A DNA stretch of 64,000 bases from Neckera pumila (lineage: Eukaryota; Streptophyta; Bryopsida; Hypnales; Neckeraceae), in assembly GCA_963969595.1 (NCBI GenBank), contig OZ018418.1, forward strand, positions 7,507,001-7,571,000. Reading direction: 5' to 3'. Positions 12,917-63,118 of the stretch are shown in pieces. Position 1 is the first letter of the stretch, and the number at the start of each line of letters is the position of its first letter. Under the pieces are notes generated by a model. It saw only the letters and a list, made by a program, of their open reading frames with translations. It had not been told where the DNA came from and did no database searches. The position numbers were made by a program, and so were the translations under genes.

Positions 12917-12931
12917 GGTGCCGATTGCACC
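12917..12931 (+). promoter_or_regulatory. Conserved hairpin GGTGCCGATTGCACC upstream of the LTR ORF (unit H)
   Basis: GGTGC and GCACC can pair around a five-base loop, 23 bases before the likely ATG. The same 15 bases occur at the matching place in the other family A LTRs. Confidence 0.6.
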
Positions 12932-12954
12932 GGATTGTAGTACCGAATGGCGGA

Positions 12955-36640: not shown

Positions 36641-37738
36641 TGTCGCAACACAAGGCAAGCCAATTCCCAGTTATACTTCCATAAATCACTCTAAATCATA
36701 ACAAAGCGACTATAAAGATCAAACCTGCGAGATTCTATGAAGTATCTAGCCTTATTTAGTCTCTAAACTTAGTCAATATCCATATTTTCCTTTGCGGTCC
36801 TAACACCACAACCGGAAACACAACAACATCGAAAACTACAATCAGACCCTTCTCTCCTTTCTCGATCCGGCCAACTATCCAACCTGGTTTTATCAACTCC
36901 TATTTATTCTTATCCTCATTCGGTTTAGTTTTACCTTTGTTTCACCATCAGAGGATTCGTCGCTTGCTTTTGAGAGTAGCAGGCCCGCTACTCCTTCCGT
37001 GATTTATAGTGGCTGAAGACCCACTTTTTTGTTCTCCTACACTAACCCGGATCTGGTTTGGACCCTCCTAGCAATCCAGAGAACTCTCCAAATCATAGGT
37101 CACACAAAGACCCCCCGTACGATCCTCTTATACTACAACGACCTTCGCGCCAAGTTCCGTGTGTACGAAGTTAGGTGGTTACAAGTGTATCCATCCGTGC
37201 CAACATCAACTAAAGCTCTTCCGTTTACCAACTAGGGTAGCGAGATCTCTCAAGAGATCGGACACTCAACTGGATTTCCCACCTAGGAGTTCAAACGCGA
37301 CTAAAGAATCCCTCCCTATCTGCCTAGCCTAACAATGGTTGTCTTGATTGGAAACCTAAACCTTAAAAATGCTGAGGAATTGAAATCCACTCCCAATTCT
37401 TTCACTACTCGCTCACTTGCACATAAGATCAAAACAAGAACACCAAAGGGAGGAATCACACCCAAACCAACGTGCGCCTTCCTAACTCTTCACCACACAG
37501 CCCTGCCACACACAGGAGAGATACACAATAAGAGGCCAACAGAAGACACCAGTAAAATTTGGGCAAAAAAGACTCGCAGCTCTCAAGCAGGGGTTGGCTT
37601 ATACACAACTTGATTTACAAAGGCAAAACGGCCTCCGGAAATTCGTGCAGAACTTCTAGATCCAATCCTGATCGATCAGATCGGATCAACATCCGATCCG
37701 GTCCTAACTATCTTACAAAAATATACATTCCTACTTAC

Positions 37739-39429
37739 CTACCCTGCAACTCCTCCACCTAGTGTAGGACTCTTGGGTTCCGCAGGTAGTTGGTTGAAGA
37801 CTTCAGTTAGATTCCTGCTCCGCTCCTTGGTAGCAGGATCCAAAAGATCTGATCCATGCGATGAATCCAGATGAATTGGTTGTCTAGGCCCAGGCCTTGG
37901 TTGGCTCTTTTTTGACTCAGGAGTCCGATCTTTGGGCTCCCTCGGATTCGATCCACCTGTCGCGAACGATTCCGGCAGCAAGTCCAAAAGTTGGATCTTC
38001 CTAGAGTACATGGATCCGTTCAGCTTTTGGCTGTTGACGTCCATCCGATTGGCTGCCTCCCTTGTTGCCACCATTGTCGCTTCCACCCAATCGGTGAAAT
38101 TGGTCAGGATCCAAAATATCCCAGAACTAGATACTTTCTTCTCCTCGTGTACTCTCTTGTCAAATAACTCCGCCTCAACAGTGGCGAATCCGAATGCTCC
38201 AAGGGTGGCCTTCACCGTTTTGGCCACCTTCCGGGTTGCATCCGCCATCTTCCGGATGACGGTCTTATCTTCCGGATGACGGTCTTATCTTCCGGATGAC
38301 GGTCTTATCTTCTTTGAAGGCAACCATCTCTGCCTTCAAAGTGTCGACTTTCTCCTGAAGCCAACAAATCTCTACCTCTTGCTTCCGGTGCTCATCCAGA
38401 TTGGTGATGTGTTGTGCTACCTTAGTCGGTAGCCTGCTGTCTCCCGGCGCCCCCACTAGCTCTCTGATATTGGAGATGATCCTTCTCTTGATCTCCCAAT
38501 CCACTTGTATTCCGCAGAGGATACAGTTCAAATGATTGAACAAATCAATTGGGTCTTTGGGATCCGGCATCTCCACTTTCGGTCCCTGTTCAGGATTCGA
38601 TTGGTTGGTAGGAGGGATTCCTCTCTTATGAGGAGGCATTGTCTTCATCCGCTTCCTCGTCTGGAGGTGCTCCTCTTCGTCTTCCTCTTCTGTCTCGGGT
38701 TCGGATCCGGTTACATCCTCCGGTTCGTCCTCCGAACCCGACTTCCCATACTTTAGGATGGATTCCTGAATGTTCTATGTCTTCTCCTCCGTGTCGGTGA
38801 GGAGTTGGTTGCACTAGTAGAGTTGAAAGAGATAGGGACTCAAAAGAGTGGTCCTACTCTTTCCAACTCTCATCACAAGCTGGGAGACCAGATCGCAAAA
38901 GATCCGGGCCCAGTTTATCTTCCGTTCCTTGCTCAGGGCTCTAAAAATAGTGTTGCCAATGGTCATCGTCACCCTTGTTGGCTTCTTCGGGTGGATGATC
39001 GGAATCAGGAACTGGAGAAGGCGGAGGTGCCGATTGCCTATGCAATCTGTAACCGCGTATTCGTTCTTGCTGCTCGGCTCTCCGTAAAACTTGTCATGGA
39101 TGAATTCAGCCCTTTGTGCCGCCATGCTTAAATCCCCTAACCGGAAGTTGTAGACCTCTCTCCACCTCTCTTTTTTCCACTCGATTGGGCGCCCCCGGAT
39201 AGTATTGTCAAATTGATTCGACATTTTGCACTTCAGCTCTCTCACCATCCACTCCTCTCTAAACCCCCAGGATTTGTCCATCAATCCTACACAACCCATC
39301 GCGTTAAGGTCGTCCATGAGTTCGGTTCTTGCCGGTTCCTCGGAAGGGATGACCAAAACTACTTTCCGGAGCTTAATCTCTGAAGTGGAAACTGGGCGCT
39401 CCCAATCTACTCTTGCAAAGCTGAGGCAT
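37739..39429 (-). pseudogene. LTR-encoded protein, family D (unit D')
   Basis: On the minus strand an MPQLCK-type start at 39429 leads into the conserved domain. The clean part runs from 39356 to 38814: RTELMDDLNAMG, the W-rich KERWREVYNF stretch, LLQFLIPIIHPKKPTRVT, NTIFRAL, INWARI and LLSPYLFQLY before a stop. Downstream, 38648-38265 and 38248-37739 hold a helical region (LQEKVDTLKAEM) and a Pro/Ser-rich end. A 20-bp unit present three times at 38251-38310 adds 40 bp and shifts the frame between these two pieces; the sister copy at 54 kb has no such repeat. Family D proteins share the domain of family A but lack its KKSRRK-type tail. Confidence 0.6.
38251..38310. repeat. Three tandem 20-bp units inside the family D ORF
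   Basis: TCCGGATGACGGTCTTATCT occurs three times in a row without change. The perfect identity argues for recent slippage or amplification. Confidence 0.95.
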
Positions 39430-39963
39430 GGACATAGACTTGGCTAGCTGGACTTTTTCCGGTCGCTACCTCACTTTCTCCTAGCCGCACGTTCTACTCC
39501 TCACTTTCTCTCCTCCGGTCTCAACCGGAATCCAACACAATCTCGACCTCTCCCGCACTCTGACGCACTTGCACTTAAATTTCCACGCACATAGAGCTCT
39601 GGCGCAGACGAAGGCCTTAAAGTGCTCAAGGTCAGCTCTAAAACTTGAGGGAAGAGAAGGAGAAAAAATGGGACGACCAGCCCTTATATAGTCCCAGGAC
39701 CCTTGACTGGTCATCATGACCTTTTCCGGTCCGATCCATAGCAATCTGGTTCAACCCTAATCCGATCTGAGATAGTTTTTGGATATGATTCCGGTCCTGA
39801 GTACTAATGCTTTGACCGGATCAGATCTAGTTTACCCCTTATTGCGATAGCTTTGTCTATCTTCAGTCTTCTTCTGCCACCTAGCAGGATCCGAATTCTA
39901 ATTACTCATTTCCATTCCAACTTTTAGGTAAGCAAGGGAAAACCAAAAATTTTGGTTGCGACA

Positions 39964-40391
39964 ACAAACTTCGTATCAAGGTTTAGAGGGAAGAATGCAC
40001 TGGAGGATATTTTTGCCGAGTTTCCGAATGAGTTTCCGAAAGAGAGGGAGGTGCCAGTATTCCACTTCAATGGGAAGAACGATTTAGCACTTCAGGATAT
40101 CATCGACTACCTGACAAAGTTGAGGTTTCCGGAAGGACTGAACCGGGAAGAGAAGAATATCTTTCAGCAGAAATCTTAGAGCCCCTTATTTGCTAAATAA
40201 GGGTACGTTATTCAAGATGGGGGCGGATGATAAACTCAGACGGTGCTTAGAAACCATGGACCGGAAAAATGTTATGAGGGCACTGCATTCTTGACCGTCC
40301 GGAGGACACTTTGCTGCCACCACGACAGTCAATCGGATTCGTTCAGCCGGATACAAGTGGTCGTATCTGATACGGGATGTCAAGGTGTATG
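39964..40391 (+). pseudogene. Ty3/gypsy pol fragment: end of RNase H and start of integrase zinc finger
   Basis: The frame from 39964 reads as the tail of RNase H and the linker to integrase (a SRFRGKNALEDIF start, then DIIDYLTKLRFPEGL). It then runs, through stops, into a GGHFAA segment and a SAGYKWSYLI segment typical of the H2C2 zinc finger of Ty3/gypsy integrases. It is cut at 40391 by an LTR unit, and the rest of the zinc finger resumes at 43928. Everything upstream (gag, protease, RT) is missing; the fragment starts directly after unit D'. Confidence 0.8.
40387..40391. repeat. 5-bp target site duplication of unit G
   Basis: GTATG precedes the unit and is repeated exactly at 43923-43927. 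Removing the unit and one copy restores the integrase zinc-finger frame across the site, including its Cys-x-x-Cys pair. Confidence 0.92.
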
Positions 40392-40839
40392 TGTGGGAGC
40401 ACGAAATGTCAATACCCGGAATTCCAGATTAATTTAGGAGTAGATTAGTGAGATTTTTCAAAATTTTTGTATACTGAAGTAGCAATCCGGAACAATTAGC
40501 CGAATCAGGAAAGTAGGAAAGTTCTGGCCTAGCAAAAACTGTAAAATGGGTAAGGAATGGATCTTAATGGGATCCATAATCCGGAAGGTAATTTAGATTC
40601 TGGAAACCTAGGACCTAGATTCTGGCCTAGGAACTAGGGTTCCGTTTGCAAAAGGCAGCGCATTTATGGGCTGTCCCAATGGGTGTCGTTCGTTGGCCGG
40701 CTACTTAAGCCCGTTCTTCTCCATTTCTTCTCCCTCTTTCTTCCGCTCAAGAATGCGTGTGTTCTTGCAGGTTTGGAGCGCGCGTTAGTTGAGTGAAAGA
40801 GTGGTGAGTTAAGATCAGATAGGGAGAGAAGGACAGGAG

Positions 40840-40854
40840 GGTGCCGATTGCACC
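40840..40854 (+). promoter_or_regulatory. Conserved hairpin GGTGCCGATTGCACC (unit G)
   Basis: Same 15 bases at the same place, 26 bases before the likely ATG at 40881. Confidence 0.6.
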
Positions 40855-40880
40855 GGACTAGTAGGATTCTATCGGCGTGG

Positions 40881-42815
40881 ATGGAGGAACCTTGGAGATC
40901 GGAAGTTACGCCCAAGTTGTTCAATCCGGTTATACCTGCGGATCCGAAGGCACGGATGCTTTTGGAGGGTGATCTGGACAGCATGGGATGCACGGGGCTA
41001 CTGTGCAAGCCGTTAAATCTGAAGAACAAGGCGATGATCCACGAAGTCATGACTGGAGCTCCGAATCAGTTTGAGTTGACGGAGTGAGGGAAGTCGACAA
41101 AGTGGACCGAGCAGATGTGGACGGAAGCCTACTCATTTCAAAAGGCGGGTTCTGGTTATGCCTCAAGAAATGACGGTTACGTTCAAGGAAAGTTCTGTAA
41201 TCCATCCAATTCAAAGGAAGGTTTTACGATCCATGAGTGCATTTACCTGAGGCAGAGGCAGGTGCTGGAGTTCCTGGTTTCGATCTTGTATCCGGAGAAG
41301 CCAACCCGGCTCACCAGCATGTTGGGCAACATGATTTTTGGAGCGATGGAGGACAGGCCAGTACACTGGGGGAGAATATTGAAGGCCGTGGTGCAGAAAC
41401 TAGCAGACGGCGTGCAGAAGGCCAAGTCCAACCCCATCAGCACCTACCTCTTCCACCTTTACTACTACAACGGGATTGTGAATGAGCAAGAAACTAAGGA
41501 CTACAAGGTCGCCGAGGAGATGCTGAAGTACGGCCTGTCTCCGGATTCGGAGAAGCAAGCCGAGGAAGCAGTTCCAGAAGTGATGCCGCCAAGGACAGAG
41601 AGGCCGGAAAGTTCGTGGCAAAGGTCAACCGATCTGAACTCAAGAGGGAAGCAGCAAGTTCCGGAAACGGAGGAACCGGGCCGGACCTTTGCAGATCTAG
41701 GGGGGAACGAGTTGTTCGATTCTGGAGTAGAGTGGTTCCAGGAGGCCCGGAAACGGTATGAGGACTTGGCTGACTTTGTATGCTTGGTATTGGACGAATT
41801 GAAGGTGGAGCCAAACAAGATTAGGGGCAAGATTAGAAAGCGTTTGGATTCGACCCTGCTCAATAGGAAGGATGAGCAGATCCGAAAATTGGAGGAGGAA
41901 AAGATCCAACTCAAGACCAATTTGGGTGTTGCAGAGGAAGCCCTGAAGTTCGCATCCAAGAGGGAGTCAGATGCAATGAATATAGTGAGAGCACTAACGG
42001 AGTTGGTGGGACAGCCCGCGGATCAAATCACACGCGTCCGGCTCTTCAATGATAATTTAGTTCAAGAGGGCGTAGTGATCGAAAGCATGATCCTCAAGAT
42101 CCTGGTGGATTATGAGATCAAGATGGAAAACGTGTTGGCAGAGATGAGGAAGCTACTAGGGTTTCTTAATCCGGCAGCCATGGACTTCACCTGATTCCCG
42201 GAAGTTTCAAGTGCGCAGTTGTGGAGGACTCCGGCCAAACCAATCCCTGCTGGAAGGACTCCCATATCAGAGCAAGGTCTTCAAGCCTTGCTGAAGGACG
42301 TTACTGCTCAAGTTGCAAGTCAGGCGGGGCCGTTACAAAGAAGGAAGAGGTTAACCGTGGAGGTTGCCAAGAAGGGTCCGGATGCTCCGGTTGTTCAGGA
42401 GGCTCCGGTGCAGATGGTCCTTATCACATTTCCCACGCGCACGGCAATGGCACCAAAGGGGATCGTAGGGCCCAAAGTCATGGCTTCTCCCGTTCGGACG
42501 GATTTGACAAACCGGATGCTTGTAATTGAGAATCCGGCCCGGACACATCCGGAAGGATTCACCCACATGGAGGGAGCATCCGAGGAAGAGGAAGAAGGCG
42601 ATGATGAGGATCCAGTTGGAGCTTCATTGGGGCAACCCATTGAGATGGAGTCGGATAGGGAGTTCCTCCAGTCCGATGACGAGGAAACCGAAGAAACGGC
42701 AACTTCACTGATTTGACGCCCAATCCAGACCCGGGCAAGTGTCCGGAACACCCCCACAAAGACGACTGGAGCGACACAAGGCAGTAGCAGTACAAAGAAG
42801 CCGCGGAAGAAGTAG
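40881..42815 (+). pseudogene. LTR-encoded protein (unit G), 645-codon span, best preserved
   Basis: From the ATG at 40881 the frame runs with one TGA (41085-41087) to 42194. It shifts, continues 42219-42716, and ends in KKPRKK and a stop at 42813-42815. The domain order is: an N-terminal conserved domain (about residues 20-230) with APNQFEL, W..QMWTEAYSF, VLEFLVSILYPEKPTRLT, NMIFGAMEDR.VHW, ISTYLFHLYYY and LKYG; a charged linker; a helical region with heptad-like KDEQIRKLEEEKIQLKTNL and DYEIKMENVLAEMRKLL; a Pro/Val-rich part; an acidic run (EEEEEGDDEDP); and a basic C-terminus that could serve as a nuclear localisation signal. No nucleocapsid knuckle, protease or RT motif is present. The role is unknown. 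Being in the LTR, it would be the first frame on the element's RNA. Confidence 0.75.
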
Positions 42816-43922
42816 TTAGTTAGGATGTTTTGATTTTTGATTAGGTTTTGAACTCTAGTTCCGAAACGGGTTTTCCGCGCTTGGGACCCTGTTTCCGGAT
42901 TTATTTTTAGAATGAGCTGGCAGTAGATTTTCCAAGTGTCTTGAATGGTTCTCTGATTGGCTGCCCGGATCCCCGGGGCTCTTTTTGGCTTTTAGGTGTT
43001 GACTTTTTGTGTGTTTTTAAGGGCTGGCAAGCTTGTTGTGCTGTCATTTCCTCCTAGCAGATTTTCATTTGTATTCCATTCCTTTTTTTTAATCTAAGTG
43101 CTGAGTGACCTTTCGGAATTTTCATCTTCGTATTCAAGTGTGGGTCTGAATGCTTGAGACTGTACTAGAGTGTGAGGGAAGACGGGTGAGGAGGAATTCG
43201 GATTTTGGATAGTCGGTTCCATTTGAAAGGTACATTTGAGATAGTGTTAGATTCCTGATTGAGTGGAAGTGCACAGTGCCTTTAAACTACCGTAACGGTG
43301 ATCCGGTTGATTGATTAGCGGAAGCGAGTCCGGTTGTCAACCCGTGCGGAGGTACGCGCCTTCCCAGAGGAAGTCGCCACTCTCCCGGAAGGTCTACCAA
43401 CCTCGGAACGGTCTAGCACTTAACAAACAACCTCCGGTAGATTCCGGAACCCTGTGATCTGTCGTTGTAGTAAGGAGTGGATCGAGTCCTGAGTGACCTG
43501 CTTTCCGGATCGGGTGTCTAGGAAGTTGTGAGGATTTGGTTCATCTTTCCTTGTTACAACTCCTTTAAATACTTTGGTATTTGTTTGTGTTCGTCAAGTT
43601 TAGCAAATGTGAGAACCAGAGTGGTGAAGTTCCTACCCCTTGAAAGATCAAAGCGGACCCTCTGAGGGTAAAACAGAAGTGAAAGAAACCATCTTGATTT
43701 GGAAGTGGAAACCGGATTCCAGATAGAACCGGATTTGTATTGAATTCTGGATAGTTAAAAGTTCCGAAAACAAGTGAATAGGTGATTGGATTGAGGAGAA
43801 AAGAGAATCTAGAAAACTTGAAATGTGCAGCATCATCTTGGAATTCCCTGGGACGATAACTTGTGTCATTTTAGCACAACATTGTGGCTAAAGATACTTA
43901 CGCCTAGATTGCACGTATGATA

Positions 43923-44124
43923 GTATGTAGGAGGTTGTGATCAATGTCAACGGACAAGAGCTCCATCCTTCCGCAATCATTGGCCACTTACTTCTATTGT
44001 TCCCATAGCACCATTTGAGAAATGGGGGATCGATTCTGTTGGCCCCATTGCTCTGGTGAATGCCGGAAAGAAGAGGTACATAATCCTTGCATGGATTATG
44101 CAACCAAGTGGATAGAAGCGCGTA
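43923..44124 (+). pseudogene. Ty3/gypsy integrase fragment: zinc finger to first catalytic Asp
   Basis: It continues the pol gene after unit G. It holds a CDQCQRTRAPS zinc-finger end, then APFEKWGIDSVGP with the first catalytic aspartate of the integrase core, then a YIILAMDYATKWIEA segment. It is cut at 44124 by unit A. The GIDSVGP and YATKW motifs are typical of plant Ty3/gypsy integrases. Confidence 0.85.
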
Positions 44125-44653
44125 TGTGGGAATACAAAAACTCCAGTAGATAGAAAATGGGTTAAAATTGGGTTAGCATAGTCTAATTTTTTTGAATTTA
44201 TTATTAGTGTCTAAGAATCCAAGTCAGTGTAGGAATACAAAAACTCCAGTAAATAGAAAATAAGAGAAAATTGGATTAGCATAGTCTAATTTTTTTTTGA
44301 ATTTGTTATTAGTGTCCAAGAATCCAGGTCAGCTAGAATGAAATTAGAAATAGCTGATACCTGGATTGTTATAATTCCTAAACCGGATAAATATTCCGGT
44401 TAAGACGGAAGCTGTAGGACGGAAGACGGATCCAAAAAACCTACGACCGAGAGCCTTCCTGCCTAGACCCCCTAGGGCACCGTTATGGGAACGGTCGCAT
44501 ACCCGTTCCCCTAGAGAACTAGCGGCCGAACGTCGGGAATTTAAGGGCGCAGTTTTCATTTCTTCTATCTCTTTCTTCTTGTACTTGTGGTGTGCACTTA
44601 AAAAATGAAAGTGTGGTGAGTTAGGACCACGCTAGGGAGAGATCAGTGAGGTT

Positions 44654-44668
44654 GGTGCCGATTGCACC
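44654..44668 (+). promoter_or_regulatory. Conserved hairpin GGTGCCGATTGCACC (unit A)
   Basis: Identical to the hairpins of units H, G and C; 21 bases before the ATG at 44690. Confidence 0.6.
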
Positions 44669-44689
44669 GGATTAGCCAGTACGTAAACT

Positions 44690-46593
44690 ATGGTAGGACC
44701 GACCCGAATGATGTCTCCGGCGATTCCAAAGGATCCGGGAGTTCAAAAGCATTTAAGGAGGACTTAGAAACGATAGGATGCGCCAGATTGTTGCAACGCC
44801 CCTGGAGTTTGAAGAATGATGAGATCATCGCAAAACTTGTAGTGGGAGTTCCGAATCAGTATCAGTTGACTATGAGAGGCTAGCCCAAACTCTGGACAGA
44901 GGACATCTAAGCAAAAGTATACTTGTTTCGGAAAACCGGATTCGGATTAGCTGCTCGTAATGATAGGACTGGGTAGAGTAAGTTCCTGGGTCCGGCGCAT
45001 AGTAAAGAGGGATACAGTATTCATGACTGTATCAAGGATAGGCATAGCCAGATTCTGGAGTTATTTATTCCGATCTTGTATCTGGAGAAGCCGACCCGGG
45101 TTACGGCGACAGTAGCGAGCACCATATTCAAAGCGATGGAAGGCCGGCCAGTGAACTGGGATAGACTCATCACGGATGTAGTCTCCAAATTAGTCGCGCG
45201 CGCAACTTCCGAGAAAGCTACCGCGCTCACCTTGTATCTTTTTCATCTTTACCATGAGCAAGGGTTTTTGAATGAGCCGGAAATGCATGCTTACATCCAT
45301 GGAGAGGAAGTCCTGAAGTACGAGTTTATGGAAGAAGTCCAACCGGACCAAACCGTCGCAGGAGAATCCGAAGAGGAGGAATCAGAGCAGCCACCCTTAA
45401 CTCACAAGCGGATCCGGAGACAAAAGTCAATGGATTAGGCTGCACAAGGCAAACAGGTGGTTACAAATGACAAACCACAACTGGAGTATCCGGAAATTGA
45501 CTATATGAAGGAGTTTTGGGAGCATGGACATAAGTTGGCCGACGAGTGCTGGTTGATCCACAACAAGATGGCAAAGCACATCAGCGGGGCCATGGCACTC
45601 TTGGGAGTAAGTTGCCTGGAACAGGTAGTGGACGCGATCTGGAACAGGACGGATCCGGGGGCACTGAAGGTGCAGGAGCTCCGTATCTGGAATCTATAGC
45701 AGGACAAGACGAATCTCAAATCTTGGGTAGCTTAGCTAGAGAGCGAACTAGAGGTGGCGAGGACGAAAGAGGCAGATGCTTCCAACCTTGTCCGGAATCT
45801 GTCGACGTTGGTGGCAGCTCCGACGGAGCAAGTGCTACGAGCCCGGCTCTTCACTGACAAGCTAACGGACAAAGCTCACCCATCTGGACCGAATGTGCTG
45901 AGGGTGCTCATCGATTACCAAGCTCGGATGGAGAAGGTGTTGGTGGAGATGCAGCAGCTGCTTGAACAACTTGACCTTTGGAGGGAGTTGGATTTTGAGG
46001 GTTTCCCGAAAGTTGCGGATGCCCAGAATTACTTACAGACTCCTGCCAGAGAAGCAGTTCCAAAGGAGAATCCGGTAAGGGGACAAGATATGTTGATCAA
46101 TGAGACCAGTATGCCCCTGATGTCCGGAAAGGAAGGAACTAGAACGTTTGTTCCGGTGAAGACAACAAAAGCTGTTGTGACAGTACTGGAAGCTTCAACA
46201 TTGGAAAAGGCGAGAGACCTGATTCTGAGAACAAGACTCACCTTTCTTACAGGTGAGCCGGCCCGACCAACTGGAGCTGCAATCTTTGCTACATTGAAGT
46301 CCATAGTTCGTTGTAACCTGGCCGGACCATCAAGAGCCATCAAGAACCCGGCTTATAGTTATCTGGAGAGGTTCACCTACATGTAGCAAGCTTCTCCGCC
46401 CAAGGGCAACAAAATTCCGTTGGAGATTTTGGATGAGGAAGAGGAAGAATGCAAAACCGGAAGGGAGTCGTAGGACAAGGCCACTCCGCCTCAAGGGCGC
46501 ACAATCATCACCCGAGCGCAGACCAAGAGTACGCCGGTGAAGTCGTCACCGACTTAGGTAGGGAGTAGCGTGAAGAAATCGCGGAGGAAGTAG
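44690..46593 (+). pseudogene. LTR-encoded protein (unit A), 635-codon span
   Basis: The start is MVGPTRMMSP at 44690. A one-base loss near 44730 shifts the frame, and the copy continues as EDLETIGCA, VPNQYQL, SKEGYSIHDCI, YLEKPTRVT, STIFKAMEGRPVNW, ALTLYLFHLYHEQ and LKYEF. The second half is open from 45754 to 46386: a helical coiled-coil-like segment (LVRNLSTLVAAP, VLRVLIDYQARMEKVLVEMQQLLEQL), then a Pro/Thr-rich part. The end reads SSVKKSRRK before the stop at 46591-46593. The span is 1,904 nt against 1,905 in unit B, which fits the single missing base. Confidence 0.7.
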
Positions 46594-47701
46594 TTAGTTT
46601 GATGGTTATTGTTTTGTTGTTTTGAATTCGATCCGTATCGGGTTTTCCGAAAGTGGAACCCGGTTTTGAATTCTTAGAAGGCCACCGGCCTGGATTTCTC
46701 AAGTATCTTGGGTGTTAGTTTGTTTGGCCACCCTGATTTTCAGGTGTGCCCTTTTGGCTTTTTGGCTTTTTAGTTTGGGTTTTAAGGGAGGGCAAGCTTG
46801 TTGCCCTCTCATTCCAGTCCAGCCCAGTAGAGTGCAGTTTGATTGTGTTCTTTTGCTTTCTTTAATTGGAGACCCTCTTGTGGATATTTCTGGATCCGGC
46901 TATGTGCATGAGTAAGAGTATTTGCAAGAGTATTGAAGTGTGAGGAAGACGAGTGAAGAGGAGTCCGGATCTAAGTGAACTGGGCATGGTTGGTAGCCGG
47001 CCTTTGAGAGAACTCTGGATCTGTGAAGGAGGATTAGTGTGTTTTGTCTTTAAATTGGTGGGATAGTAATCCGGTTGATTGAGTAGCGGAAGCGAGTCCG
47101 GCTGTCAACCCATGCGGAGGTAAGCACCCGCCAAGAGGAAGTAGCCGCTCTACGGGAAGGCCTGCCAACTTCCAAATCAGTCTGAGAATCTTGAATAACG
47201 TAGCTACCGGTTCTGGGTACTTGATCTGTCGTTGTAGTGAAGGAGTAGAAAGTAGATTTTGAGTGACCTGTTTTCCGAAAGGATCATCCGGAGAGCTGTA
47301 AAGATCACTAGCTGCCTCTTTCCTGCGGCAGTACCATAAGAGAGTTGTGTGTCTTTGTATGTGTGTATATGTTGAATTATGAGTAGTGAGTCCCTACCCC
47401 TCTAAAAGACCAATAGTGGCCCTCCTGAAAATAAAACAAGGGTACAAAAAAACCAAAGTTTCGATTGAGAGTTACCGGATTCCGGATAAGGATGGATCCG
47501 GATTGGATTCCGGAAGGTAGTATTATCCGAAAAGAGAAAGAGTAAAAAGATTGAGTTACAGATTGCTTAGGATTTGTTTTAGAGAGATATCCGGATAGCC
47601 TTAGTTTGCAATAACACCTAAAATTCCCTGGGACAATATTTCGTCTTATCTTAGCACATCTTTGTGTTAAGGATACTTACGCTTGGATTGCGCGTACGAC
47701 A

Positions 47702-48519
47702 GCATGCAGCCCAGAATTGTTCCGCCAACACGGCTGCTTCATTCCTATTCGCAGAAATCATGATGAGATTCGGGCATCTCCTGGAACTAATTAGTGATAG
47801 GGGATTGCACTTTCTCAACCACGTTGTTTAGGACATCACTGAGAAGTATTTGATCAAACACCGAAAGACTACTCCGTATAATCCCAGAGCGAAAGGATTG
47901 ATGATACGGGCCAACGGCATTATTGAAAGGTCTTTGAACAAGATGGTATCGAAACACAAGATGGATTGGGACCTCAAGCTTCCGTCAGCTGTTCACTCTT
48001 ACAACACATCTAAGAAAACAACGACTGGAAGAATGCCCTTCTTTATGGTGTTTGGACAAGAGGTTGTCCACGGAATCGATTTGGAGTTGGAGTCTCACAA
48101 AGTCATGGCCACCCGCCATGCATTACGGAATGGAGATCTAGAAATTTGACTCCTGGCAATAGAAGATCTAGAAGAAGTCCGACTGGTGGCTTTGGACCTG
48201 ATGAAAGAAGTCCAAGAGGGAAGAAAGAAGGATCACGGCAGCAAACTTCCGGTAAACCATGGGATCAAGGAAGGAGGTCTGGTACTGCTATATGATAGCC
48301 ATTACCGGATTTTTCCGAATAAGGGCCATACTCATTGGATGGGACCTTATAGAGTTAAGAGCATCTTTCCAAACAGATCTATGCAGCTGGAGGATCTTCA
48401 AAGAGTATGGCTTGACAATAGGTAAACAAATCCCGAGTCAAGAAATATGAACTAGATCCGGCATCTGAGGATGAGGAAGAGGATGTTCGCGGGGACTCTC
48501 ACATTTGAAAAAGGGATTA
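47702..48519 (+). pseudogene. Ty3/gypsy integrase: core, catalytic end and GPY module
   Basis: It resumes the integrase after unit A. It has ELISDRGLHF with the second catalytic Asp, a TTPYNPRAKGL.IRANGIIER stretch that holds the catalytic Glu, then a SYNTSKKTTTGRMPFFMVFGQEV stretch (in parts) and, from about 48240, the C-terminal module with LLYDSHYR, HWMGPYRVKSIF and MQLED. The GPY/F-type module is diagnostic of Ty3/gypsy (Metaviridae) elements. Stops at 47829 and 48148 show it is dead. The gene ends in an acidic patch (DEEEDV) just before a polypurine tract and LTR unit B. Confidence 0.88.
48504..48519 (+). other. Polypurine tract next to the 3' LTR
   Basis: TTTGAAAAAGGGATTA lies directly before TGTGAAAATACGG, the start of unit B. 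A purine-rich run right after the integrase gene and touching a TG terminus is where plus-strand priming occurs in LTR retrotransposons. It identifies unit B as the 3' LTR of this pol gene. Confidence 0.75.
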
Positions 48520-48943
48520 TGTGAAAATACGGAAACTCCAATAGATAGAAAATAGAATAAAATTGGGTTAGAATAGTCTAATTTTTTTGAATTTATTATT
48601 AGTATCTAAGAATTCGGATCAGCTAGAAAGAAATTAGAAATAGCTGATACCTAGATTGCTAGAACTCTTAAACCAGATAAATATTTCGGTAACAGACGGA
48701 AGCCGTAGGATGGAAGACAGATCTAGAAAGCCTACGATCGATCGCCTTCTGGCCTAGACCCCCTAGGACACCGTTATGGGAACGGTCTCATAGCCGTTCC
48801 TTGGGGATCTGTCGGCCAAACGTCAGGTACTCAAGGGCACAATTTTCATTTTTTCTATCTCTTTCTTCTAGTACTTGTGGCGTGCGCTTAGAGAGTGAAA
48901 GTGTGGTGAGTTAGGACCGTGCTAAGAAGAGATTGGTGAGATT

Positions 48944-48958
48944 GGTGCCGATTGCACT
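48944..48958 (+). promoter_or_regulatory. Conserved hairpin, one change (unit B)
   Basis: GGTGCCGATTGCACT; the last base differs from the other four copies. Confidence 0.55.
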
Positions 48959-48979
48959 GGATTGGCAAGTCGGTAAACT

Positions 48980-50884
48980 ATGGCAGGGCCAACCCGGATG
49001 ATGTCTCCGGCAAATCCTAAGGATCCGGAAGTCCGGAAGCGCTTGGAGGAGGACTTGGAAACCATAGGATGCGCTGAGTTGTTACGGCGCCCCTGAAGTT
49101 TGAAGAATGATGAGATCATCGCGGAACTTATAGTGGGAGTTCCGAATTAGTATCATTTGACTATGAGAGGCCAACCCAAGCTCTAGACAAAGGACATATG
49201 GGTGGAGGTATATTCGTTCCACAAAGCCAAATTCGGGTTAGCTCCTCATAATGATAGAATCGGGCAGACTAAGTTCCGAGGTCCGGCGCACAGTAAGGAG
49301 GGATACAGTATTCATGACTGTATTGAGGATAGGCATGGCCGGATTCTGGAATTTCTGATTTTGATTCTGTATCCGAAGAAGTCAACCCAGGTTACGGCTT
49401 TAGTAGCGAGCACCATATTTGGAGCAATGGAAGGCAGACCGGTGAACTGGGGTAGACTTATCACGGACATAGTCTCCAAGTTAATCCCGCATGCAACTTC
49501 CGGAAAAGCCACCCCGCTGAGCCCATATCTTTTCCACCTCTACCATCAGCAGGTGTTTTTTTAAGAACCAAAGATGCATGCGTACGTCCATAGAGAAGAG
49601 CTCCTAAAATACGGGTTTACGGAAGAAGTCCAACCAGACCAACCTGTCCAAGGAGAATCCAAAGAGGAGGAATCTGAGCAACCACCCTTAACGTACAAGC
49701 GCATCAGGAGACAAAAGTCCACGGATCAGGCTACTTGAGGCAAGCAGGTGATTATGGATGACAAACCGCATTTGGAATATCCGAAAAATGAGTACATGAA
49801 GGAGTTCTGGGGGTGCAAACATAAATGGACCCACGAGTGTTGATTGATCCACAATGAGATGGCGGAATACATCAGCGGAACCATGACACTCTCGGGAGTG
49901 AATTGCTCGGAGTAGATAGCTAACACGATCCAAAAAAGGACGGATCCGGGGACACTAAAGGCGCAGAAGCTCCGCATCCGGAATCTGTAGCAAGACATGA
50001 CGGATCTCAAATCCCGGGTAGCCCAACTAGAGAGCGAGGTAGAAGTGGCAAGGACAAAGGAGGCAAATGCTTCCAACCTTGTCTGAAATATATTGACTTT
50101 GGTGGCAGCTCCAGCGGAATAGGTGTTAAGAGCTTGGCTCTTCACCGACAAGCTCACAGATAAAGCTCACCCTTCCGGACCGAATGTGCTAAGGGTGCTC
50201 ATCACCTACCAAGCCCAAATGAAAAAAGTGTTGGCAGAGATGCGGCGTATGCTAGGGCAACTAGATCTGGGAAGAGAGATGGATTTTGAGGGTTCCACGG
50301 AGGTCGCGGATGCCCAGACTCACTTGTAGACTCCGGCCAAAAAAGTTGTACCGAAAGAGAATCCGGTAGTAGGATAGGATATGCTGTTTGATGGTACTAG
50401 TACGCCCTTGATGTCCGGAAAGGAGGGAACCGGAACGTCTGTTCCGGCAAGGACGGAAATAGCTATTATGACAATACCGGAAGCTTCAACGCCGGAATAG
50501 GCAAGAGACTTGATTCCAGGAACGAGGCTCTCCTTTTTCCCAGGTGAACCAGCTCGACAGACTGGAGCTGCGCTCTTTGCTATATTGCAGTCCATGGTTC
50601 GTCGTAGCTTGGCCAGACATTCCAATGTCATCAAGAATCCGGCTCAGAGCTATCCGAAGAAGTTCACTCACATGCAGCAGGCTTCTCCGTACAAGGCCAA
50701 TAAAATTCCATTGGAGATCTAGGATGACGGGGAGGAAGAATTTAAGACCGGAAGGGAGTCGAAGGATGAGGCCACTCTGCCCCAAGGGTGCACGATTATC
50801 ACCCGCGCGCATACCAAGAGCACGCCAGTGAAGTCACCACCAACTAAGGCAGGGAGCAGCGTGAAGAAATCAAGGAGGAAGTAG
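48980..50884 (+). pseudogene. LTR-encoded protein (unit B), 635-codon span
   Basis: The frame reads MAGPTRMMSP from 48980 and stays in one phase over almost all of the 1,905-nt span to SSVKKSRRK and the stop at 50882-50884. It is broken by about a dozen in-frame stops and very few indels. The conserved domain is clear at 49202-49564 (SKEGYSIHDCI, ILEFLILILYPKKSTQVT, STIFGAMEGRPVNWGRL, LSPYLFHLYHQ). Stops compared with sister copies fit single transitions: TAG for CAG at 49148 and TGA for TGG at 49094. The preserved phase with point stops suggests decay by methylated-cytosine deamination. Confidence 0.7.
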
Positions 50885-52003
50885 TTAGTTTGGTAGGGTT
50901 TTGTGTTTAATTTTTGAATTTGTTCCGCCTCGGGTTTTCCAGAGGTGGGATCTAGTTCCAGATTCTTAAGAGGCCGCCGGCCTAGATTTCCGGTTATCTC
51001 AGATGGTAGTTTGATTGGCCACCCTAATTTTTGGATGTGTCCTTTTTGCTTTTTGGCTTTTTAATTTGGGTTTTAAAAGGAGGGCAGGCTTGTTGCCCTC
51101 TCATTCCATTCCAGCCCATTACAGTGCATTTTGATTATGTTCTTTTGCTTTCTTTAATCTAAGACCACTTGTGGATATTTCTGGATCCGGCTATGTACAT
51201 GAGTAAGACTGGTTGCAAGAGTGTTGAGGTGTGAGGAAGACGGGTGAGGAGGAGTCCGAATCTAACTCAACTGGGTGTGATCGGTAGTCGGCATTTGTAA
51301 GAGTTTTAGATCTGTGAAAGAGGATTAGTGCACCATACTTTTAAACCGTTAGGATAGTGATCCGGAAGAATGGAGTGGATGTGCGTCCAAAACCTAAGAA
51401 GGGCTTCATGAGGAGATAAGCGACCGCCAGCAGAATATTCCCCACCATCGGAAGGCTTGCCAACTGTCGGATCAATTTGAGAGTCTTGAACAGAAGCGTC
51501 ACTACAAATTTTGGGTGCTAGATCTATCGTTGTAGTGAAGGAGTAGAAAGTGGATTCTGAGTGACTTGTTTTTCGAAAAGATCATCCAAAGAGCTGTGAG
51601 GATTACTATCTGCCTCATCCCTGCCACAAATTCGGAAGAGAGTTGTTTGTGTCTTTGTGTGTGTATGAGTGTTTGAACTACAAGTGGTGAGTCCCTACCC
51701 CTCTATAAGACCAACAGTGGACCCCCTGACGGTAAAACAAGGATATAGAAAATCAAATTTTTGATTGAGAGTATCAGGATTCCGGACAAGGACGGATCTG
51801 GATTGGATTTCGGAAGGTAGTATTACTCGGAAGGAGAAAGAGTAAAGCAATTGAGTTACGGATTGCTTGGGGTTTTGGTTTGGAGAGACATTCAGATAGC
51901 CTTAGTTTGCAATAAACACCTAGAATTCCCTGGGACAATAGTTCGTGTTATCTTAGTACGTTTTTGTGTTAAGGATGCTTACGCCTGGACTGCACGTACG
52001 ACA

Positions 52004-52084: not shown

Positions 52085-52509
52085 TGTGGGAATACAAAAA
52101 CTCCAATAGATAGGAAATAGGATAAAACTGGGTTAAAGTAGTCTAATTTTTTGAATTTGTTATTAATATCTAGGAATCCGGATCAACTACAAAGCAATTT
52201 GAAATAGCTATTACCAACATTGCTAAGATCTCCTAAACCGGATAAATATTCCGGTGAAAGACGGAAGCCGTAGGATGGAAGACGGATCCGGAAAGCCTAC
52301 AATCGGTAGCCTTCCTGCCTAGAGATCCTAGGGCACCATTACGCGATTGGTCACATACCCGTTCCTCTAAGGAACTGTTGGCCAAGCATTGAGTACTTAA
52401 GGGCTCTGCTCTCATTCTTTTTCTCTCTTTCTTCTTGTACTTATGACGTGCGCTTAGAGAGTGAAAGAGTGGTAAGTTAAGACCATGCTAAGGAGAGATT
52501 AGTGAGGTC

Positions 52510-52524
52510 GGTGCCGATTGCACC
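52510..52524 (+). promoter_or_regulatory. Conserved hairpin GGTGCCGATTGCACC (unit C)
   Basis: Same 15 bases; 21 bases before the ATG at 52546. Confidence 0.6.
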
Positions 52525-52954
52525 GGATTAGCGAGTCGATAAGCTATGGCAGGGCCAGCCCGGATGATGTCTCCAGCAATTTCCAACGATCCGGAAGTCC
52601 GGAAGCACTTGGAGGGGGACTTAGAAACGATAGGATGTGCCGGGTTGTTACAGCGCCCCTGGAATTTGAAGAGTGATGAGATTGTCGCAACCAGATTTTT
52701 GGTTTTCCTTTGCTTACCTAAATGTTGGAACGGAAACGGGTAAATAGGATCCGGATTCTGTCAGAGAGGCAGAAGAAGATTGAAGATAGATAATGCTAAT
52801 CCAGTAAAGAGAAAACTGGATCTGATCCGGTCAAAACATTAGTATTCAGGAGCGGAATCACATCCGGATCTCACCTTAGATCGGATTAGGTTGAACCGGA
52901 TTGATATGGACCGGACCGGAAAAGGTCATGATGACCAACCAAGGGTCCTGGGAC

Positions 52955-52962
52955 TATATAAA
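52955..52962 (+). promoter_or_regulatory. TATA box in the family D LTR
   Basis: TATATAAA lies in GGGACTATATAAAGGCTGG, about 270 bp from the LTR start. The same box exists in unit D' on the minus strand. If transcription starts about 30 bp downstream, U3 is about 300 bp and the ORF lies in the transcribed R-U5 part. Confidence 0.65.
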
Positions 52963-53056
52963 GGCTGGTCATCTTCATTTTCACTCCTTTACTTCCCTCG
53001 AGTTCTGAAGCTGACCTTGAGCACTTTTACGCCTCCGTCTGCGCCAGAGCTATTGT

Positions 53057-54840
53057 GTGTGTGTAAACTTCAGGCCGGGTATGTCAAAGTGTGTAGGAGA
53101 GGTAGAAATTGTGTGGGTTGCAGGTTTTGCGTTGTCTTCCGGTTGGGATCGGACGAGAAGAAGTGAGGAACGGGATGTGCGGCTAGGAAAGAGTGAGGTA
53201 GTGACCGGGAAGGGTCCAGTTAGCAAGTCCTTGTCCATGCCTCAGCTTTGTAAGAACAGACCGAGAGCGCCCAGTTCCTCCTCCGACGTCAAGCCCCGGA
53301 AAGTTGTTCCGGTCATTCCTACCGCGGAACCGGCAAGGACCAAGCTCATGGACGATCTCAACGCAATGGGCTATTTGGTGTTGATGGATAAACCCTGGGG
53401 GTTTAGGGAGGAGCGGATGGTGAGAGAGCTGAAGTGTAAGGTGCCAAATGAGTTTGACAACACGCTCCAGAGCCGCCCGCCCGAATGCGAAGAAGAGAGG
53501 TGGAGGGAAGTTTACAACTTTTGGATGGGAGGTTCTGGTATGGCTAGACGGAGAGCCGAGTTCATCCATGACAAGTTTCATGGAGAGCCAAGGAATAAGG
53601 ACGCATACGTGGTCGCGGATTGCAAGAGCAACCGGCACCGCAACCTCCTCCAGTTCCTGGTTCCGATCGTCCACCCAGAGAAGCCAATGAGGGTGACGAT
53701 GACCATTGGCAACACGATTTTTGGTTCCCTGAGCGGGGAACGGAAGGTGAACTGGGCCCGGATCTTTTCTGATCTGGTGTCCCAGCTGGTGACAAGGATC
53801 GGAAAGAGTAGGGCCACTCCTTTGAGTCCCTATCTCTTCCACCTCTACCATCGCAACCAACTCCTCATGGATACGGAGGAGAAAACCTGGAACCTTCAGG
53901 AGTCTATCCTAAAGTACGGAGAGTCGGGTTCGGATGATGAGCCGGAAGATCCAACCGGATCCAAACTCAAGACAGAAGAAGAAGACAAGGAGGAGCACCT
54001 CTGGACGAGGAAGCGAATGAAGACAACACCTCCTCGCAAGAGAGGAACCCCTCCTACCAACCGGTCAACTCCAGAACAGGGACCAGATGTGGAAATGGCG
54101 GATTTCGAAGACCCGACCAACCTGTTCAATCAGTTGACTGTAATTTTGTGCGGGATACGAGCAGATTGGGAGGGCAAGAGGAGGATCCTCGCTAGTGTCG
54201 GAGAGCTGATGGGTGCACCGGGGGATAGTAAGCTACCGGGTAAGGTGGCCTAGTATCTATCTAATCCAGATGAGCACCGGAAGGAAGAGGCAGAGATTTG
54301 TCGGCTTCAGAAAGAAGTCGACACTCTAAAGGCCGAGATGGTAGCCCTCAGAGAGGACAAAGCTGCAGTCCGGGAAATGGCGGAAGCAACCCGATAAAGG
54401 TGCCTGAGTCTGTGAAGGCCACTCTTGGAGAATCCGGATCCGCCGCAGTCAAGGCGGAATTATTTGACAAAGGGGTGCATGAGGAGAAGAAGGTATCCGG
54501 TTCCCGGATAGTTCGAATCCTGACCGACTTCATCGATCGGGTGGAAGCATCATTGGTGGCGGCCAAGGAGGCAGCCAACCGGATGGACATCAGCAGCCAG
54601 AAGCTGAATGGGTCCATGTACTCCCGAGAGATCCAACTCTTGGACCTCTCGCTACTGGATTTGTTCCCAGCAGGAGGATCAAATCCAAGGGAGCTTAAGG
54701 ATCAGACGCCCGAGTCAAGAAAGAGTCACCAAAGGCCTGGGCCTGGACAACCCATTCATCTGGATTCATCACCAGAATCAGATCTTCCGGATCCTGCTGC
54801 CGTGGAGCGGAGCAGGAACCTGACTGAAGTAGGTAGGTAG
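53057..54840 (+). pseudogene. LTR-encoded protein, family D (unit D)
   Basis: The open frame from 53057 to 54253 is 398 codons, but the start shared with the sister copy is more likely the ATG at 53237 (MPQLCKNRP). The conserved domain reads RTKLMDDLNAMG, VPNEFDN, ERWREVYNF, LLQFLVPIVHPEKPMRVT, NTIFGSLSGER.VNWARI, LSPYLFHLYHRNQ and LKYG. An acidic stretch and a basic RKRMKTTP segment follow. A TAG at 54251 replaces a Gln codon of the sister copy, and a shift near 54400 moves into the frame 54298-54840, which has an Ala/Glu-rich helix (VEASLVAAKEAANRM) and a Pro/Ser-rich end. Confidence 0.7.
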
Positions 54841-57800
54841 GAATGTAATTTTTGTAAGATAGTTAGGACCGGATTTGATGTTGACCCGGTCTGGCCGGTT
54901 AGAATTGGACCCAGATGTCCAGCACGGATTTCCAGGGGCCTTTTTGCCTTGTAATCAAGTTGTATATAAGTCAGCCCTTGCTTGGGAGCTGCGAGTCTTT
55001 TCGCCCAAATTTTGTATATGTCTTCTCTTGGCCTCTTGTTGCGTGTCTCTCTCGTGTATGGCAGGGTTGTATGGTGAGGAGTTAAAAAGGCGCATACTTG
55101 TGCTGGTGTGATTTCTCCCTTTGGTGTTTTTGTTTTGATCTTATGTACAAGTGAGCGGGTTGTGAAAGCATTGGGAGTGGATTTTAGTTCCTCAGCATCT
55201 CTAAGGTTTAGGATTCCGGGCAAGACAGCCGTTGTTAGGCTAGGCGGATAGGGAGGGATTCCTTAGTCACGCTAAAACTCCTGGGTGGGAAATCCGGTTG
55301 AGTGTTCGATCTCCTGAGAGATCTCACTGCCTTAGTGGGCAAACGGAAGGACTTTAGTTGATGTTGGAATGGACAGGTTCACTTGCAACCGCCTGGCTTT
55401 GTACAGATGGAACATGGCGCTGAGGTCGTTGTAGTATGAAAGGATCGTACGGGGGGTCTTTGTGTGACCGGTGATCCGGAGAGTTCTCTGGATTGCTGTG
55501 AAGGATCAAACCAGATCCGGATTAGTGTAGGAAATTGGAGAAAGAGAAGTGGGTCTTCAACCACTATAAGTCACGGAAGGAGTGGCGGGCCTGCCACTCT
55601 CAAAAGCAAGCGGCAAACCCTCTGATGGTGAAACAGAGATAAAACTAAACCAAATGGGAGTAAGAGCGGATGTAAGTTGATCAGACTGGATCAGAAAGTT
55701 GGCCGGATCGGCAAAGGAGAAGAGGGTCTGATTGCATTTTTTGGTGTTGTTGTGTTTTCGGTTGTGGTGTTAGGACCGCAAGGGGAAATATAGGTACTGA
55801 CTAAGCTTAGAGATCAAATAAGGCTAGATACTTCACAGAATCTTGCGGGTTCGATCTTTAGAGTCACTTTGTTATACTTTAAAGTGGTTTTGGTAGTATA
55901 ACTAGGAATTTGCTTGCCTTGTGCTGCGACAAAGATCATTGCGGAACTTGTAGTAGGAGTTCCAAATCAATATCAATTGACTGTGAGAGGCCAACCCAAG
56001 CTCTGGATGGAGGACATATGAGCGAAGGTATATTCGTTCCGGAAAGCCGGATTTGGGTTAGCTCCTTGTAACGATAGGACCGGGTAGACTAAGTTCTGGG
56101 GTCCGACCCATAATAAAGAAGGGTACAGTATTCATGACTGTATCGAAGATACGCATAGTCGGATTTTAGAATTTCTGATTTTGATTCTGTATCCGGAGAA
56201 GTCGACCCAGGTTACGGCCACAGTTGCGAGCACCATATTTGGAGGGATGGAAGGAAGACCGGTGAATTGGGGTAGACTTATCACGAACGTGGTCTCCAAG
56301 TTAGTCGCATGTGCAACTTCTGGAAAAACCACCCCGCTAAGCCCATATCTTTTCCACCTCTACCATCAGCAGGTGTTTTTGAATGAACCAAAGATGCATG
56401 CGTACGTCCATAGAGAGGAGGTCATAAAATACGGGTTTATAGAAGAAGTCCAACCGGATCAACCCATCCAAGGAGAATCCGAAGAGGACGAATCGAAGCA
56501 GCCACCTTTGACGCACAAGCGGATCAGGAGACGAAAGTCCACGGATCAGGCTGTGCGAGGCAAGCAAGTGATTACGGATGATGAACAGCAATTGGATTAT
56601 CCAAAAAATGAGTACATAAAGGAGTTCTAGGGGCTTGTATTTAAGTGGGTCAACGAGTGTCGGTCAATACACAATGAGATGTTGGAATGCATTACCATAG
56701 CCATGAAACTATTGGAAGTAAATGGCCTGGAGCAGATAGCTGGCGCGATCCGGCAAAGAACGGATCTGGAGACTCTAAAGTTGTAGGAGCTCCGGATGTG
56801 GAACCTGCGACAGGACCGGACAAATCTCCGATCCCAAGGAGCCCAGTTAGAAAACAAGCTAGGAGTGGCGAGGGCAAAGGAGGCAGACGCTTCCAACCTC
56901 GTCCAAAATCTCTCAGCTTTGGTGGCAGCTCCAGCGAAGCAGGTGTTAAGAGCTCGGCTCTTCATTGACAAGCTAACGGACGAAGCTCACCCTTCCGGAC
57001 CAAATGTGCTGAGGATACTCATCGACTATCAAGCCCAGATGGAGAAAGTGTTGGCGGAGATGCAACATCTGCTGGAGCAACTAGATCTAAGCAGGGAGAT
57101 GGAGTTTGAAGGTTTCCCGGAGGTTGCGGATGCCCAAAATTACTTACAGACTCCTGCCAAAGAAGTAGTAACGGAGGAGAATCCGGTAAGGGGACAGGAT
57201 ATGTTGATCAAAGATACCAATATACCCCTGATGTCCAAAAAGGAGGAAACCGGAACGTCTGATCCGGCAAGGACAAGAGCAGCTATTGTGACAATGCCGG
57301 AAGCATCAACTCCGAAAAAGGCAAGAGACTTGATTCCAAGAACGAGGCTCTCCCAGATGAGCCGGCCCGACCAATTGGAGCCGCACTTTTTGCAACACCA
57401 GAGTCAGTGGTTTGTCGTAACTTGGCCGGACCTTTGAGTGTCATCAAGAATCCAGCTCAGAGCTATCCAAAGAAGTTCACTCACATACAGCAGGCTTCTT
57501 CGCCCAAGGGCAATAAGTTTCCGTTGGTGATTTCGAATGACGAGGAGGAAGAATGTGAGACCAGAAAGAAGTTGGAAGACGAGGCCACTCTGCCTCAAGG
57601 GTGCACGATCATCACCCGGGTGCAGACCAAGAACACGCCGATAAAGTCACCACTGACCAAGGCAAGGAGTAGTGTGAAGAAATCAAGGAGGAAGTAGTTA
57701 GTTTGGTAGGGTTTTGTGTTTAATTTTTGAATTTGTTCCGCCTCGGGTTTTCCAGAGGTGGAACTCAGTTCAAGATTCTTAAGAGGCCGCCGGCCTAGAT

Positions 57801-63114: not shown

Positions 63115-63118
63115 TTAA

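What the first reader, a model, noticed from the sequence alone, without database searches (positions are those of the whole stretch)
40392..52003. LTRs that encode a protein: a 635-645-codon ORF inside each family A LTR
Units H, G, A, B and C are each about 3.5 kb with TG starts, CA-type ends and no internal LTR or pol. Each holds the same reading frame: 644 codons in H, 645 in G, 635 in B, and one base short in A. Coding genes normally lie between LTRs. A frame carried in both LTRs would be present twice per element and would survive as solo LTRs. Constant length among diverged copies argues for past selection on the protein. I know of no described plant LTR family with such an ORF, but I could not search.
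Basis: partly seen in the sequence, partly recalled or inferred. Interest (0 to 1): 0.88.

Follow-up and report, generated by a model that had tools for sequence, protein, structure and literature searches.

The report
Plant retrotransposon gene inside its LTRs
A plant jumping element carries a conserved gene of unknown function inside the repeats at both of its ends, where normally only control signals lie, so the gene comes twice per element and stays behind when the rest is lost.

Summary
The 3.2-3.6 kb units are true LTRs of Ty3/gypsy retrotransposons with a tRNA-Asp primer site, and a protein frame lies inside the LTR. Of five candidate elements fetched from the host genome, three have such LTRs at both ends of gag-pol; one has identical 5-bp target duplications, LTRs 98.2% alike and a 514-codon open frame in each. 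In 24 of 30 integrase loci the frame follows integrase. The frame is under purifying selection: pooled dN/dS 0.16-0.25 within families, 0.77-2.15 in shifted frames; close integrase pairs give 0.25. Intact frames of 550 and 644 codons exist elsewhere, with relatives in other collections. I found no convincing Pfam, PDB or fold match. The copies at the stated coordinates are decayed: lengths as claimed, but 3, 9 and 14 internal stops. My model, an accessory gene in U3 with its own promoter followed by a second promoter for gag-pol RNA, is inferred. Closest parallel: mouse mammary tumour virus sag. The reviews I consulted place plant extra ORFs in the internal region.

The parts
12467..16018 (+). 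U-type solo LTR, TSD TGAAG/TGAAG
   Evidence: ends and duplication read; U-type LTRs at both ends of a full-length element
12955..14886 (+). LTR-encoded frame, 643 codons plus stop, 8 internal stops
36641..39963 (-). F-type LTR (unit G), no target duplication; lies between an LTR remnant and a pol remnant
37745..39395 (-). LTR-encoded frame in G, broken
   Evidence: tblastn
39967..40386 (+). Ty3/gypsy pol remnant before the A insertion (linker after RNase H and start of the integrase zinc-binding domain)
   Evidence: DNA match to L041; Pfam on the L041 frame
40392..43922 (+). A-type solo LTR inserted in integrase, TSD GTATG/GTATG
40881..42815 (+). LTR-encoded frame, 644 codons plus stop, 3 internal stops
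   Evidence: intact relatives in L057-L059
43923..44119 (+). integrase remnant between A and B
44125..47701 (+). B-type solo LTR inserted in integrase, flanks GCGTA/GCATG; its frame has 9 internal stops
47707..48507 (+). integrase C-terminal part that runs up to the 3' LTR
48508..48519 (+). polypurine-tract-like sequence AAAAAGGGATTA
   Evidence: similar sequence at the same place in L044 and L045
48520..52003 (+). C: 3' LTR of a truncated element
49001..50884 (+). LTR-encoded frame in C, 627 codons plus stop, 14 internal stops
52085..58817 (+). D: B/C-type solo LTR, TSD TTCCT/CTCCT, interrupted by F
56088..57437 (+). two open pieces (56088-56627, 56787-57437) of the LTR-encoded frame in D
52683..55931 (+). 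F-type solo LTR nested in D, TSD GAGAT/AAGAT, ends TGTCGCAA...GCGACA
53237..54831 (+). LTR-encoded frame in F, changes frame near 54395
52955..52961 (+). TATATAA upstream of the frame (candidate promoter 1)
54963..54969 (+). TATATAA downstream of the frame (candidate promoter 2)

Best explanation
These are LTRs of a group of plant Ty3/gypsy retrotransposons in which an accessory gene lies wholly inside the LTR, in the same sense as gag-pol. Shown: the element is LTR - tRNA-Asp primer site - gag - RT/RNase H - integrase - polypurine tract - LTR, both LTRs carry the frame, the frame has been under purifying selection, and the frame remains in solo LTRs. Inferred: the LTR holds two start sites. 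Promoter 1, near the LTR start, makes an mRNA for the accessory protein. Promoter 2, after the frame, starts the genomic RNA, so the gene lies in U3 and is copied to both ends at each round of reverse transcription. The protein (about 550-640 aa: helical N-terminal domain, acidic linker with basic patch, coiled coil) is most likely a nuclear regulator of the element, such as a transactivator or anti-silencing factor, that can also act in trans from solo LTRs. That role is a guess from architecture.
For: Full-length F-type element at C2:40270913 (L055/L056): LTRs 3321 bp, 98.2% alike, TSD GCACT/GCACT, frames of 553 and 1065 codons where gag and pol lie, a 514-codon open LTR frame in both LTRs. 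U-type element L043/L044: aligned LTR parts 99.75% alike over 2018 bp, primer site TGGCGCTGCTGCCGGGGA. A-type element L045/L046: LTR pieces 94.4-94.7% alike. Primer site fits this genome's own tRNA-Asp 3' end. gag, RT, RNase H and integrase by Pfam in L043/L045. 24 of 30 integrase loci have the frame downstream on the same strand. dN/dS 0.16-0.25 in frame against 0.77-2.15 shifted, 44 copies, 99 codons. Integrase yardstick 0.10 over all pairs, 0.25 for close pairs, 23 loci. Third-position excess only inside the frame. Frames without a stop in L047 and L054 (550 codons) and L057-L059 (644 codons, two independent insertions). TATATAA before the frame in 21 of 21 F-type matches; TATATAAG after it in 15 of 17 (matches include both LTRs of one element).
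Against: Every copy of the frame in the window carries stops, frame changes or an insertion. In the U-type element both near-identical LTRs share stops, so an element with a broken frame could still jump, at least with help in trans; in the F-type element both LTRs share an early stop, at 514 instead of about 558 stop-to-stop codons. Six of 30 integrase loci show no frame; two of them (L027, L031) reach the LTR junction. The four A, U, B and C copies checked lack a TATAWAW box; their candidates TACTTAAG and TTTTAAGG are weak. By 8-base conservation 896 of 3148 windows score above promoter 1 and 197 above promoter 2. A conserved splice-donor-like GGTGAGTTAG before the frame in A/U/B/C fits the rival with one promoter. 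No RNA data were available.
Confidence: 0.85

Rival explanations
1. One promoter only, before the frame. The frame lies in R/U5, is the first cistron of the genomic RNA, and splicing from a donor in the leader removes it to allow gag-pol translation.
For: TATA in F types about 280 bp and a TATA-like TACTTAAG in A types about 180 bp before the start codon, and GGTGAGTTAG plus a GGTGCCGATTGCACC hairpin conserved between A, U, B and C copies.
Against: F-type LTRs have a second conserved TATATAAG after the frame (15 of 17); no matching acceptor was identified (only looked at by eye).
Confidence: 0.3
2. Like MMTV sag: the frame is in U3 and is expressed only from the 3' LTR by spliced or downstream-initiated RNA of full-length elements; solo LTR copies are silent.
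For: Position and sense would fit U3 of the 3' LTR; Sag is called an LTR-encoded protein in PMC11998498 (passages). How sag is expressed is recalled, not from a call.
Against: A conserved TATA lies before the frame inside the LTR itself (21 of 21 F-type matches).
Confidence: 0.2
3. The units are not LTRs but independent mobile units or captured host genes that look like LTRs.
For: Five of the seven window units stand alone with equal or similar 5-bp flanks.
Against: Paired units flank gag-pol, with primer site and purine tract, and in one element an identical outer duplication; 24 of 30 integrase loci run into one.
Confidence: 0.02
4. The frame is a neutral leftover that is open by chance or by recent copying.
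For: Every window copy is broken.
Against: dN/dS 0.16-0.33 for pairs that are not saturated, third-position excess, predicted proteins in other collections up to 57% identical over the whole length.
Confidence: 0.03

Closest known systems
Mouse mammary tumour virus sag (superantigen gene in the LTR)
   Same: A protein frame inside the LTR; called an LTR-encoded protein in PMC11998498 (passages). That it lies on the sense strand within U3 is recalled
   Different: Animal retrovirus, type II membrane protein with an immune role; here a plant Ty3 element and a protein with a predicted coiled coil. Sag itself was not fetched or compared
Additional ORFs (aORF/eORF) of plant LTR retrotransposons, such as Retand, Grande, RIRE2, SIRE and the OTA group
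   Same: An extra protein besides gag-pol, in some families kept across most copies; the Grande protein is reported nuclear (PMC11963269, passages)
   Different: Described in the internal region, upstream or downstream of gag-pol (PMC11963269), or in the 5' or 3' part of the element (PMC6317226); the review PMC7264820 as held has no hit for 'in the LTR' or 'within the LTR'. Here the frame is inside the LTR
Non-chromovirus Ty3/gypsy elements (OTA superclade Athila/Tat; Phygy; Selgy)
   Same: 5-bp duplication and a tRNA-Asp primer site, one of the primers named for non-chromoviruses (PMC6317226, passages)
   Different: Membership by RT tree not tested; Phygy and Selgy are described as rather short, most OTA as having eORFs (section 9)
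HIV nef and foamy virus bel/bet regions (recalled, no call)
   Same: Coding sequence that reaches into an LTR
   Different: They start outside the LTR and only overlap it; here start and stop are both inside

Membership tests
Ty3/gypsy LTR retrotransposon | paired LTRs with short target duplication | tested here: met
   L055/L056: 98.2% LTRs, GCACT/GCACT; L045/L046 flanks ATACT and TATAC, alike only if shifted by one base; outer 3' flank of L043/L044 not seen
Ty3/gypsy LTR retrotransposon | order gag - RT - RNase H - integrase | tested here: met
   Pfam matches in L043 and L045 in element order; not run on L055
Ty3/gypsy LTR retrotransposon | primer site after 5' LTR and purine tract before 3' LTR | tested here: met
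   TGGCGCCGCTGCCGG and related forms against tRNA-Asp(gtc); GAAAAAGGGGTCA or a G-run before the 3' LTR
OTA superclade (Athila/Tat) | RT/RH/IN phylogeny; extra RNase H in Tat | not tested
   no reference sequences fetched; the Pfam output shows no second RNase H region, but this was not searched for
Plant aORF elements (internal extra ORF) | extra ORF lies between LTRs | tested here: not met
   frame lies inside both LTRs
MMTV sag-like LTR gene (works like) | full coding frame inside the LTR, sense strand | tested here: met
MMTV sag-like LTR gene (works like) | homology to Sag protein | not tested
   Sag was not fetched or compared
PF20167/PF04195 plant transposon proteins (considered from recall) | Pfam match | tested here: not met
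   neither among the matches of window and L054/L047 proteins nor among the 25 of 62 families shown for 52 relatives

The most novel reading that the evidence does not exclude
Each LTR is a complete gene: promoter, protein frame and terminator, followed by a second promoter for the genomic RNA. Solo LTRs then form a free-standing gene family in the host (each of three frame queries gave 2500-2900 first-look candidates in this genome, mostly unscored and partly the same places), whose protein acts on the LTRs, for example against silencing, so an element can lose gag-pol and still feed its relatives in trans.
Probability: 0.35. Interest if true: 0.88.

Novelty: new variant of a known kind. Interest (0 to 1): 0.77.

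Why it matters
LTRs are usually treated as control sequence and solo LTRs as non-coding. A conserved gene inside them means that each insertion brings two copies of the gene, that solo LTR formation spares it, and that reverse transcription renews both copies from one template. It gives a plant counterpart to the LTR gene of a mouse retrovirus and a protein family with no Pfam entry found here, whose role in element control or silencing can be tested directly.

Tried and rejected
Plasmid tblastn of the frame: no match. Viral contigs: 284 pattern hits, none a relative by tblastn. Pfam: single proteins gave only weak matches below the curated cut-offs, mostly in the coiled-coil part; among 52 relatives the commonest was PF23403 (LTI65/LTI78 N-terminal), 24 of 52 members, best E 0.0014, then DUF3140 in 4 and DivIC in 3. 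I read these as composition effects but did not test that. Fold search of the AlphaFold2 model: mean pLDDT 62; residues 31-230 in blocks of ten from 44 to 93, the dip at 61-80; 39 PDB and 92 BFVD matches at E <= 10, none at E <= 0.001, best 1.7 and 0.045. PDB sequence profile: six matches, best E 0.096. Two fetched candidates (L039/L040, L041/L042) had the 3' LTR but no LTR of the same type in the 15 kb upstream of integrase; L040 holds a reversed F-type piece. A comparison of window A with L059 gave dN/dS 0.99, most likely because the aligner dropped stop symbols; with X at stops it is 0.31. The first integrase yardstick (30 rows with duplicate loci and the window) was replaced (23 rows; window, L010, L011 and L019 left out, one match per locus). 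In one search I left out three of 47 rows: L044_U (other LTR of the L043 element), L019 (same locus as L045), L016 (divergent); before that 4 loci that duplicate others were skipped and 14 of 61 extracted frames dropped for coverage. L057 and L058 are 99.97% alike including flank, so they count as one insertion. Paper searches: eight answered (others gave no paper). No listed title or abstract start describes a plant frame inside an LTR; I did not open the listed papers that contain the words 'LTR ORF', except PMC11998498. Papers seen: passages of PMC6317226, PMC7264820, PMC11963269 and PMC11998498, and section 9 of PMC6317226.
Full report
What is there. The window is G000:C11:7507001-7571000 of a 339.5-Mb genome in 18 contigs. 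A LEAFY-family search finds five matches in it and none in 14 control genomes, which points to a land plant; its name is not given. The cluster at 36-59 kb is a nest of LTRs. A Ty3/gypsy pol stretch, mostly integrase, is cut by two insertions, A and B, bounded by unit G on its left, and ends at unit C. A has an identical 5-bp duplication. B's flanks agree at 3 of 5 bases. D has 4 of 5 and is itself split by F, whose flanks agree at 4 of 5. The unit at 12467 has 5 of 5. C has none, but it follows integrase and a purine-rich tract, so I read it as a 3' LTR. Unit G has no duplication and sits between an LTR remnant and the pol remnant.

True LTRs. An integrase query listed 43 matches, of which 30 were given as loci. 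In 24 of 30 the frame (match of at least 120 residues) lies downstream on the same strand. Six have none: four hold only part of integrase and do not reach the LTR junction, while L027 and L031 do reach it and still show no frame in the 1.5 kb held. A pattern for the LTR end followed by a primer-like TGG gave 14 places, 6 with the same CTTTTGG. Two of these lay about 6 kb before integrase and were fetched. L043/L044 carries U-type LTRs that align at 99.75% over 2018 bp; the 3' LTR then breaks off before an F-type frame, which I read as a nested insertion. L045/L046 carries A-type LTRs, 94.4-94.7% alike in two pieces, the 3' one lacking about 650 bp. A third element, L055/L056, chosen because two F-type frames flank a pol match, has LTRs of 3321 bp, 98.2% alike, a primer site, a long G-run before the 3' LTR, and GCACT on both outer sides. 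Where gag and pol should lie it has frames of 553 and 1065 codons separated by one stop; the second ends inside integrase, and Pfam was not run on it. Pfam finds gag, zinc knuckle, RT, RNase H and integrase in the other two. The primer site reads as the complement of the 3' end of this genome's tRNA-Asp(gtc): the pattern occurs in 7 places, and ARAGORN names the two fetched ones tRNA-Asp. Two more candidates fetched showed only the 3' LTR.

The protein. F-type copies L047 and L054 have 550 codons without a stop. A-type copies L057-L059 have 644 codons from the first Met, in a 672-codon stop-to-stop frame; L057 and L058 are one duplicated insertion. F- and A-type proteins are 31% identical over 437 columns. 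Searches of 5.8 billion proteins gave 192 relatives of the F type (best 57% identity over the whole length) and 27 of the A type (best by E-value 44% over 73%), each time with only about 8000 candidates scored. Organisms and DNA context are not given, so I cannot say whether they lie in LTRs. No Pfam family passes its cut-off for these proteins; weak matches of relatives are listed under Tried and rejected. The model, made for relative P0002, has a mostly confident helical N-terminal part (residues about 30-230, with a dip at 61-80), a disordered acidic linker and a long helix typical of a coiled coil. No fold or sequence match to solved structures stands out.

Selection. On 44 copies and 99 shared codons, pooled dN/dS within families is 0.16 (F), 0.17 (U), 0.20 (B/C/D) and 0.25 (A); shifted frames give 0.77-2.15 over all group comparisons. 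Between families synonymous sites are saturated; pN/pS is 0.38-0.53 in the core and 0.57-0.73 over the whole frame. Whole-frame pairs give 0.19 (L047/L054), 0.33 (L058/L059), 0.31 (window A/L059) and 0.23 (window B/C). Integrase treated in a similar way gives 0.10 over all pairs and 0.25 for close pairs, with 1.26 and 1.34 in shifted frames. So at like distances the LTR frame looks about as constrained as integrase. Divergence by codon position peaks at the third base only inside the frame. Many copies are decayed, so these values mix selected and neutral change.

How it may work. The F-type LTR of L055 has TATATAA at base 276, start codon at 557, and a second TATATAAG at 2350, after the frame. 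The first is kept in 21 of 21 F-type matches, the second in 15 of 17; these matches are related and include both LTRs of one element. A, U and B types have weaker TACTTAAG and TTTTAAGG-like sequences at the matching places, plus a conserved splice-donor-like GGTGAGTTAG and a small hairpin before the frame. I read this as two promoters, with the frame in U3. A single early promoter with splicing is the main rival. As a whole the LTR looks like a gene cassette.

Results against. No window copy is intact. The young U-type element shares its stops between both LTRs, so it jumped with a broken frame already present, unless help came in trans. Promoter conservation is moderate: 896 and 197 of 3148 windows score higher. 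Two integrase loci that reach the LTR junction have no frame.

Known or new. The mouse mammary tumour virus sag gene is the nearest parallel (PMC11998498, passages). [quoted passage not shown] Eight answered literature searches listed no plant frame inside an LTR. The held library lacks many subscription papers, so priority is not proven.

Noticed in passing
5740-8358 and 33847-34989: Two satellite arrays with units of about 179 and 176 bp, alike only in short blocks of 23-55 bp
   Followed up: partly
28342-29728: Nearly perfect palindrome of 1.39 kb, 97% self-complementary, arms 649 nt with 107 nt between
   Followed up: no
11170-11844: Frame of 224 codons with a DUF7869 match
   Followed up: no
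1378-2282 and 63115-63981: Dispersed repeat, 81% alike, also found just after an LTR in L039 (9276-9911)
   Followed up: no
   Followed up: no
L057 and L058: An A-type LTR with flank is present twice, 99.97% alike over 3776 bp and in opposite orientation about 27 kb apart
   Followed up: no
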